Shown one piece after another: positions 25,118 to 27,000 of a DNA stretch of 51,954 nucleotides. A program made the translations under genes and the position numbers. The stretch covers positions 1-51,954 of the forward strand of contig JAJYUP010000009.1 in NCBI GenBank assembly GCA_021792455.1, written 5' to 3'. The stretch comes from Actinomycetes bacterium (GTDB lineage: Bacteria > Actinomycetota > Thermoleophilia > Solirubrobacterales > Solirubrobacteraceae). Below the pieces are notes generated by a model. It did no database searches. It was not told where the DNA came from and was given only the letters and a program-made list of their open reading frames with translations. The number at the start of each line of letters is the position of its first letter. Positions within the stretch are counted from its first letter, which is position 1.

Positions 25118-26647
25118 ATGTCGCTGAGCGCGACCGTCGCGCCACGGCGCGCGCTGCTGCTCACAAGCGCCGTCATTCTCGCGATCGTCGCGCTCACGCT
25201 TGGCCTCGCCCCTGCGCCCGCCTCCGCCTCTGCGGGCTCCTCACTCGAGATCCTTGGGCTCCAGGGACGGCTCAGCACCGACCTCGGTCTCAACTCCGCC
25301 TGGGTCGTCATCGCTGGCCTGTTCGTCATGTTCATGCAGGCTGGGCTTGCGATGCTCGAGGTCGGCTTCGTGCGCGGCAAGAACGCCGGCTCCGTGATAG
25401 CGAAGATCATCACGAACTTCGCGATCGCCGCGATCGCCTTCTGGGCGGTTGGGTTTGCGTTCTCCTTTGGACGGGGTGGATCGATCATCGGCGTTCATGG
25501 GTTCTTCGTCGAAGGGCAGCGCGCGTTCCCGCTCGCGTTCCCGCTCAACAGCAAGGGCGTCGATCCCGATGCGCTGTGGTTCTTCGAGTTCGTCTTCTGC
25601 GCGGTCACGCTTGCGATCGTTTGGGGCACGACGCTCGAGCGCATCAAGTTTGGCGTCTACATCGCGTTCGCGCCGATATTCGCGGGGGTCATCTACCCTG
25701 TCGTCGCGCACTGGATCTTCGCCGACGGCTGGCTGCGCTCGAGCCTCCACGTCCAGGACTTCGCTGGGTCGATCGTCGTCGACGTCACGGCTGGTGCGGC
25801 GGCGCTCGCGGTGCTCCTCCAGCTCGGGCCGCGTCGCGGCAAGTATGGCCCTGACGGCAAGCCGCGAGCGATCCCTGGGCACAACATGCCGCTGTTCGGC
25901 CTCGGCATCATCATCCTCTGGCTCGGATGGTTCGGCTTCAACCCCGGCTCGACTCTCAACGCGCTCGACGGCCGTTTCGCTGAAATCGTGCTCGTCACGC
26001 AGCTCGCGGGCTCGGCAGGCGTGCTCTCCGCGATGGCCGTGATGTGGGCTGTCACGAAGACCTTCGACATCGGGATGGCGGGCAACGGCGCGATCGCTGG
26101 ACTGGTTGCGATCACGGGTCCCGCCGGCTACGTGGCGCCCTGGGCTGCCGTCGTGATCGGGGCGGTGGCAGGGGTGATCGTCGTGCTTGGTGTCGTCCGC
26201 ATCGACCGTCGGCTCGATGACCCGATCGGTGTGCTCTCTGCGCACCTGCTCGCGGGCATCTGGGGAGCCCTGTCGCTTGGCCTGTTCGCGACCCCCCTGC
26301 TCGCCTCCCACAACCTGCCTGGAAGTCATGGGGGTCTCTTCTACACGGGGTCGTTCACGCAGCTCGGATCCCAGGCGGTCGGCGTGATCGTCACCTTCGC
26401 GTTCGTGTTCTCAGCCTCTTATGCGGTCTTCTGGCTCATAGACCGTACGATTGGCTTGCGCGTCAGCGCTGAGGAAGAGAACGCGGGGCTCGACATCTCT
26501 GAGCACGGGATGTATGGATATCCAGAGCAGTTCATCCCGATCCCAGAGCTCGTAGGCTACGGAGCTGTGCCTGCGAGTCAGAGGATAGGCACTGGACCGC
26601 TGTCGGATCCGGACGTGACGGCAGGGCGAGGAAGAGGTGCGCGGTGA
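25118..26647 (+). CDS. amt: Ammonium transporter (Amt), Asp at the first pore-histidine position
   Basis: 509 aa, about 11 membrane segments after a cleavable-looking signal peptide (LTLGLAPAPASASA). Family landmarks: FMQAGLAMLEVGFVRGKNAG, PVVAHWIFADGW, LGWFGFNPGSTLNA and DDPIGVLSAHLLAGIWGALS. In most Amt proteins two pore histidines conduct the substrate. The second is present (H376), but the first (E. coli AmtB H168, in DFAGGTVVH) is Asp222 here (DFAGSIVVD, GAC at 25781-25783). The cytosolic tail is long. A PII gene follows with a GTGA overlap, the classical amt-glnK pair. Nitrogen-responsive control is likely, but no operator was identified. Confidence 0.95.
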   Translation: MSLSATVAPRRALLLTSAVILAIVALTLGLAPAPASASAGSSLEILGLQGRLSTDLGLNSAWVVIAGLFVMFMQAGLAMLEVGFVRGKNAGSVIAKIITNFAIAAIAFWAVGFAFSFGRGGSIIGVHGFFVEGQRAFPLAFPLNSKGVDPDALWFFEFVFCAVTLAIVWGTTLERIKFGVYIAFAPIFAGVIYPVVAHWIFADGWLRSSLHVQDFAGSIVVDVTAGAAALAVLLQLGPRRGKYGPDGKPRAIPGHNMPLFGLGIIILWLGWFGFNPGSTLNALDGRFAEIVLVTQLAGSAGVLSAMAVMWAVTKTFDIGMAGNGAIAGLVAITGPAGYVAPWAAVVIGAVAGVIVVLGVVRIDRRLDDPIGVLSAHLLAGIWGALSLGLFATPLLASHNLPGSHGGLFYTGSFTQLGSQAVGVIVTFAFVFSASYAVFWLIDRTIGLRVSAEEENAGLDISEHGMYGYPEQFIPIPELVGYGAVPASQRIGTGPLSDPDVTAGRGRGAR

Positions 26648-27000
26648 AGAAGGTTGAGGCATTCATCAGGCATGAGGCGTTCGAGCCGATCAGGATCGAG
26701 CTGCTCGAGCTCGGCTTCCCTTCGCTGTCCGTCACGGAGGCGAGGGGTTCTGGCCGTCAGGCGGGCATCGTCGAGCACTACCGAGGCGCGGAGCTCACGA
26801 GCCACCTGAGGCCGAAGATCAAGCTCGAGTGCGTGGTCGCAGACCAGGACGTCGAGACCGTCGTGCAGGTGATCCTCAAGCATGGGAGCACTGGCAACGT
26901 TGGGGACGGCAAGATATTCGTGATGCCAGTCGAGCAGGCGTGGCGGGTGCGCACCGGAGAGCGCGGAGAGTCGATCCTCCAGGCTCACCGAGAGCAGTAG
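26644..27000 (+). CDS. glnK: PII nitrogen signalling protein (GlnK) lacking Tyr51
   Basis: 118 aa starting with GTG inside the amt stop (GTGA). PII proteins bind ATP/ADP and 2-oxoglutarate and plug Amt channels. Landmarks: MKKVEAFIRHEAFEPIRIEL, T-loop base GSGRQ, KIKLECVV, B-loop TGNVGDGKIFVMPVEQAWRV and RTGERGE. The T-loop reads VEHYRGAELTSHLRPK: residue 51, the tyrosine that is uridylylated or adenylylated in many PII proteins, is Leu. Covalent modification there is impossible, so control must rest on ligand binding or another site. Confidence 0.96.
   Translation: MKKVEAFIRHEAFEPIRIELLELGFPSLSVTEARGSGRQAGIVEHYRGAELTSHLRPKIKLECVVADQDVETVVQVILKHGSTGNVGDGKIFVMPVEQAWRVRTGERGESILQAHREQ

What the first reader, a model, noticed from the sequence alone, without database searches (positions are those of the whole stretch)
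25775..25790. Ammonium transporter with Asp in place of the first pore histidine
The normally near-invariant H of DFAGxxVVH is Asp222 (GAC, 25781-25783), while the second pore His (H376) is kept. Acidic replacements occur naturally (Glu in some fungal Mep proteins), and engineered AmtB His-to-Asp forms have been reported to remain active with altered selectivity. A native bacterial Asp version may conduct differently.
Basis: partly seen in the sequence, partly recalled or inferred. Interest (0 to 1): 0.6.

Follow-up and report, generated by a model that had tools for sequence, protein, structure and literature searches.

The report
Ammonium transporters with aspartate pore residue
An actinobacterium, and at least eleven related genomes, carry an ammonium transporter whose usual first pore histidine is a conserved aspartate; laboratory mutants of this kind move ammonium faster but less selectively, so this looks like a natural version of that altered pore, still to be tested.

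Summary
The gene at 25118-26647 is a full-length Amt (PF00909; NCBIfam amt above cut-off). Residue 222, which aligns with AmtB His168, is Asp (GAC, 25781-25783). The second pore His (H376 = H318), Phe gate and S1 serine are kept. It is not a base error: the same Asp is found in 12 separately assembled genomes from 6 genera of one family, written GAC or GAT. These form one clade (bootstrap 86 with the motif columns masked) nested inside His-type transporters of the order. Fixed or nearly fixed companion changes (T219I, L223V, A334G, T384A) mark the clade, and most of these genomes also hold a His-type paralogue. Asp was not seen outside that family in my scans. Glu at the same site is common in Actinomycetota, against published statements that it is a fungal trait. 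Here the gene overlaps a PII gene by 4 bases, so it is probably a PII-controlled ammonium importer. AmtB H168D experiments predict higher flux, lower affinity and some K+ leak, but no native Asp protein has been measured to my knowledge. New variant of a known kind, not a new system.

The parts
25118..26647 (+). amt gene, 509 aa, Asp-type ammonium transporter
   Evidence: PF00909 358 bits, TIGR00836 384 bits (cut-off 343); predicted model matches Amt structures, TM-score by target 0.87-0.89
25757..25783 (+). DFAGSIVVD motif (residues 214-222)
   Evidence: aligned to AmtB DFAGGTVV-168
25781..25783 (+). codon GAC, Asp222, at the position of AmtB His168
25772..25774 (+). Ile219 (AmtB T165 position): Thr or Ser in His-type relatives, Ile in all 12 Asp-type sequences
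26117..26119 (+). Gly334 (AmtB P274 position): Ala in all 50 His-type relatives, Gly in all 12 Asp-type sequences
26243..26245 (+). His376, second pore histidine (AmtB H318), kept
26644..27000 (+). PII (glnK-type) gene, GTG start overlapping the amt stop by 4 bases (GTGA)
   Evidence: PF00543 86 bits; sequence

Best explanation
A PII-regulated Amt trimer subunit of ordinary fold in which the pore dyad His-His has become Asp-His. Shown: the residue, its conservation in a clade, the retained second His, Phe gate and S1 serine, and the overlap with a PII gene. Inferred: NH4+ is gathered at the outer S1 site (Phe201, Phe160, Ser278), passes the Phe gate, and the Asp222 carboxylate with His376 raises pore hydration and offers a stronger cation/proton site than His. 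The result would be electrogenic ammonium uptake of higher capacity and lower affinity than the His-type paralogues, with part of the flux as intact NH4+ and possibly a small K+ leak. In this genome transport would be shut by the coupled PII protein when nitrogen is sufficient.
For: Full-length Amt with all other pore landmarks. Asp conserved in 12 genomes of 6 genera with synonymous codon variation, as expected under purifying selection. Monophyletic within His-types. AmtB H168D: current 14.2 vs 3.4 nA, Km 14 vs 0.8 mM, current only partly lost in D2O, weak K+ complementation in yeast; Hall and Kustu, as cited in PMC3647058, found that H168D supports growth on low ammonium. A His-type paralogue is kept in most of the same genomes, consistent with division of labour. 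PII gene overlap.
Against: No native Asp-type Amt has been assayed. AmtB H168D lacks the clade's companion changes (T219I, L223V, T227A, A334G, T384A), which may restore His-like behaviour. Earlier work summarised in PMC3647058 found that of 14 engineered variants only H168E kept methylamine transport. Several Asp-type genes have no PII gene beside them. The own genome, G021 and G134 show no close His-type paralogue, though these assemblies are incomplete.
Confidence: 0.55

Rival explanations
1. Functionally neutral swap: the companion substitutions compensate, and the protein is a normal selective, high-affinity Amt transporter.
For: Neighbouring changes T219I, L223V, T227A, A334G, T384A accompany Asp, several removing side-chain hydroxyls; fungal Mep1 works with Glu in its own context (PMC7048316). 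In the own genome it is the only member of this Amt clade found.
Against: All tested acidic substitutions in AmtB and Mep2 changed kinetics or selectivity; the companion changes have not been shown to be compensatory and may be simple lineage markers.
Confidence: 0.3
2. The Asp-type has left nutrient uptake and serves mainly as a sensor or as a K+/cation channel.
For: Acidic dyads hydrate the pore and let K+ through; His-type paralogues are available for uptake in most genomes.
Against: No C-terminal signalling domain (509 aa, low-confidence tail); single acidic variants of AmtB remain ammonium-preferring with no K+ current in vitro; overlap with PII is the usual transport arrangement.
Confidence: 0.12
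3. Base error, assembly artefact or decaying gene.
For: The window comes from a fragmented 83%-complete assembly; one relative copy (G208) is broken near this site.
Against: Asp in 12 separate genomes with GAC and GAT, full-length frames, all other pore residues kept.
Confidence: 0.01

Closest known systems
E. coli AmtB and its H168D variant
   Same: Fold, Phe gate, S1 serine, second pore His; the engineered variant has the same acidic residue at the same site; amt-PII pairing
   Different: 28-30% identity in the structural alignment; wild type has His168; Phe replaces Trp148; clade-specific companion changes absent from the engineered variant
Fungal Mep1/Mep3 (Glu at the first pore His)
   Same: Natural acidic replacement of the first His with the second His kept
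   Different: Glu not Asp; fungal; coexists with the Mep2 transceptor
Actinobacterial Glu-type Amt (DFAGG..VE[IM])
   Same: Natural acidic first position; present in the same class and order, often beside His-types
   Different: Glu; a different sequence clade (about 35% identity to the window protein); Pro at the position of Gly334
His-type Amt of the same order (DFAGS[TS].VHL)
   Same: Nearest relatives, 51-67% identity, often followed by a PII gene
   Different: His at the first pore position; Thr/Ser219, Leu223, Ala334, Thr384

Membership tests
Amt/Mep/Rh ammonium transporter family (PF00909, TIGR00836) | Profile match over full length above curated cut-off | tested here: met
   PF00909 358 bits over 1-399/399; TIGR00836 384.4 bits vs 343.3
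Amt/Mep/Rh ammonium transporter family (PF00909, TIGR00836) | 11-helix Amt fold | tested here: met
   Predicted model, core pLDDT mostly above 90, TM-score by target 0.87-0.89 to bacterial/archaeal Amt structures
Amt/Mep/Rh ammonium transporter family (PF00909, TIGR00836) | Phe gate, S1 serine, D160 equivalent | tested here: met
   F160, F274, S278, D214 aligned to AmtB and conserved in the clade; W148 is Phe201, as in most of the order
Amt/Mep/Rh ammonium transporter family (PF00909, TIGR00836) | Twin-His motif | tested here: not met
   First His is Asp222, second His376 kept. The family has known natural exceptions (fungal Mep1), so family membership stands; membership of the twin-His subgroup does not
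Amt/Mep/Rh ammonium transporter family (PF00909, TIGR00836) | Ammonium transport activity | not testable with these tools
   Needs expression and assay
Asp-type Amt clade (defined here) | Monophyly independent of the motif | tested here: met
   UFBoot 86 with residues 218-227 and 334-336 masked, sister to 3 His-types with 100; in the unmasked FastTree of all sequences also one clade but local support only 0.27

The most novel reading that the evidence does not exclude
A bacterial lineage has fixed, by duplication and a coordinated set of pore changes, a native Asp-His Amt that works as a high-flux mixed transporter/NH4+ channel beside a selective His-His paralogue: a natural counterpart of engineered AmtB H168D and a bacterial parallel to the fungal Mep1/Mep2 split.
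Probability: 0.35. Interest if true: 0.65.

Novelty: new variant of a known kind. Interest (0 to 1): 0.45.

Why it matters
Whether the twin-His dyad enforces selectivity in ammonium transporters is an open question argued mostly from engineered mutants. A clade that evolved Asp there, next to close His-type paralogues in the same genomes, gives a natural experiment with defined partner substitutions. It also shows, with the widespread bacterial Glu-types, that published statements confining acidic first-position residues to fungal Mep1-like proteins are too narrow.

Tried and rejected
Base error: rejected. Degenerate gene: rejected, frame and pore landmarks intact. Asp as a scattered polymorphism: rejected, it forms one clade. 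The first two iqtree2 runs failed (thread setting; time limit); a 40-sequence masked run worked. Acidic residue in viral Amt genes: no match to the pattern in viral contigs. One alignment call failed on wrong coordinates. Literature searches for a described bacterial Asp- or Glu-type Amt found none in the open library; subscription papers are not covered. Side-chain geometry of the dyad was not measured because the model coordinates were not readable by scripts.

Full report
Check of the observation. The ORF at 25118-26647 encodes 509 aa and reads QDFAGSIVVDVTAG around residue 222, with codon GAC at 25781-25783. It is a full-length member of PF00909 and of the NCBIfam subfamily amt, above its cut-off. 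A profile of the Asp-type proteins aligned to AmtB structure 2now places D222 on residue 168 (Glu in that engineered structure), H376 on H318, F160 and F274 on the Phe gate F107 and F215, S278 on S219, W271 on W212, D214 on D160, and F201 on W148. Phe at the W148 site is normal for the order. The predicted model (core pLDDT mostly above 90) matches Amt structures with target-normalised TM-scores of 0.87-0.89.

Not an error. A search of 232 genomes of the order, with motifs read from the fetched loci, found the same Asp in G000, G021, G027, G110, G133, G134, G183, G186, G188, G207, G209 and G210; G208 has a related copy broken by an indel at this site. A named public record, a Solirubrobacterales bacterium from Lac Pavin (L106), also has it. 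The genomes belong to six genera of one family (g1, g5, g8, g9, g14, g42). Within the window's own genus only 2 of the 24 genomes searched show it. The codon is GAC in 8 and GAT in 4 of 12 sequences, which is what purifying selection on Asp would leave.

Origin. In a maximum-likelihood tree with the motif columns masked, the Asp-types form one clade (bootstrap 86) sister to three His-types (100) inside the order's His-type radiation. In the larger FastTree the clade is also recovered but with local support of only 0.27. So His to Asp most likely happened once, in a duplicated copy: most Asp-carrying genomes also keep a close His-type gene. The clade is marked by positions that are fixed or nearly fixed and differ from 50 His-types: I219 (12/12; Thr or Ser in His-types), D222, V223 (Leu in 50/50), A227, G334 (Ala in 50/50), A384 (Thr in 50/50) and A391. 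Several lie on the same two helices as the pore dyad. Whether they compensate for the Asp is inference.

How rare. In an even sample of 396 genomes of the phylum, 24 had an acidic match: 22 Glu and 2 Asp, both Asp in the window's family. In 399 genomes of the class there were 78 matches: 70 Glu and 8 Asp, again Asp only in that family. The His form dominates: 240 of 396 genomes match the version of the pattern that also admits His. The pattern demands GAC-T at its start and so undercounts; for example it missed G210. Glu-types occur in Mycolicibacterium, Rhodococcus, Nocardia, Streptomyces, Arthrobacter, Cyanobium, Clostridium magnum and Methanobrevibacter. [quoted passage not shown]

Surroundings. 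The amt stop codon overlaps by 4 bases (GTGA) the GTG start of a PII gene at 26644-27000, as in the known amt-glnK pairing. PII adjacency is also present for G021, G208, G209 and G210, but no PII gene was found within the fetched flanks for G027, G110, G133, G134, G183, G186 and G188; for G207 the contig ends. Other flanking genes have no evident link to nitrogen: thioredoxin-TPR protein, DUF1599 protein, AMP-binding enzyme, zinc dehydrogenase.

Mechanism. AmtB H168D gives larger ammonium currents (14.2 vs 3.4 nA), a Km of 14 instead of 0.8 mM, no K+ current in liposomes but weak K+ rescue in yeast, and a current reduced about fourfold but not abolished in D2O, read as coexistence of deprotonation-dependent transport and passage of hydrated NH4+ (PMC9040831). 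I take the native Asp-type to work in the same direction: ammonium uptake of higher capacity and lower affinity, controlled by PII where linked. This is inference by analogy; the native proteins carry companion changes the mutant lacks, and fungal work shows that context matters (a Mep1 given back its His is inactive, PMC7048316).

Verdict. Real, conserved, not described in the open literature I could search, and testable, but a point variant within a well-known family whose engineered equivalent has been studied. New variant of a known kind, interest 0.45.

Noticed in passing
L063-L177; genomes: Glu at the first pore-His site is widespread in Actinomycetota (70 of 78 acidic matches in the class sample, 22 of 24 in the phylum sample) and occurs in some Clostridium, Cyanobium and Methanobrevibacter, against published statements that it is a fungal trait.
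   Followed up: partly
L003 (own genome, contig C234), protein P0002: A third Amt-family gene in the same genome lacks the pore histidines (HDYIGNFSFYIF at the first site; second site also lost) and scores far below the amt cut-off (124 vs 343 bits).
   Followed up: partly
window 26644-27000: The PII protein has RGAELTSHLRP in the T-loop, with Leu where enterobacterial PII has the uridylylated Tyr51 (position judged by eye); relatives have Leu or Val there, so control by uridylylation is unlikely.
   Followed up: partly
window 25724-25726 (Asp203): A second acidic residue, Asp203 (Gly in nearly all His-types; AmtB G150 position, two residues from the W148 site), occurs in six of twelve Asp-types including the window.
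   Followed up: no
window 25586-25588 (Glu157): Glu157 replaces the usual Gln (AmtB Q104) beside the Phe gate in 4 of 11 Asp-types; nearly always Gln in His-types.
   Followed up: no
L196 (G208:C40): The Asp-type copy of genome G208 is split by an indel around residues 218-236; assembly fault or decay not resolved.
   Followed up: no
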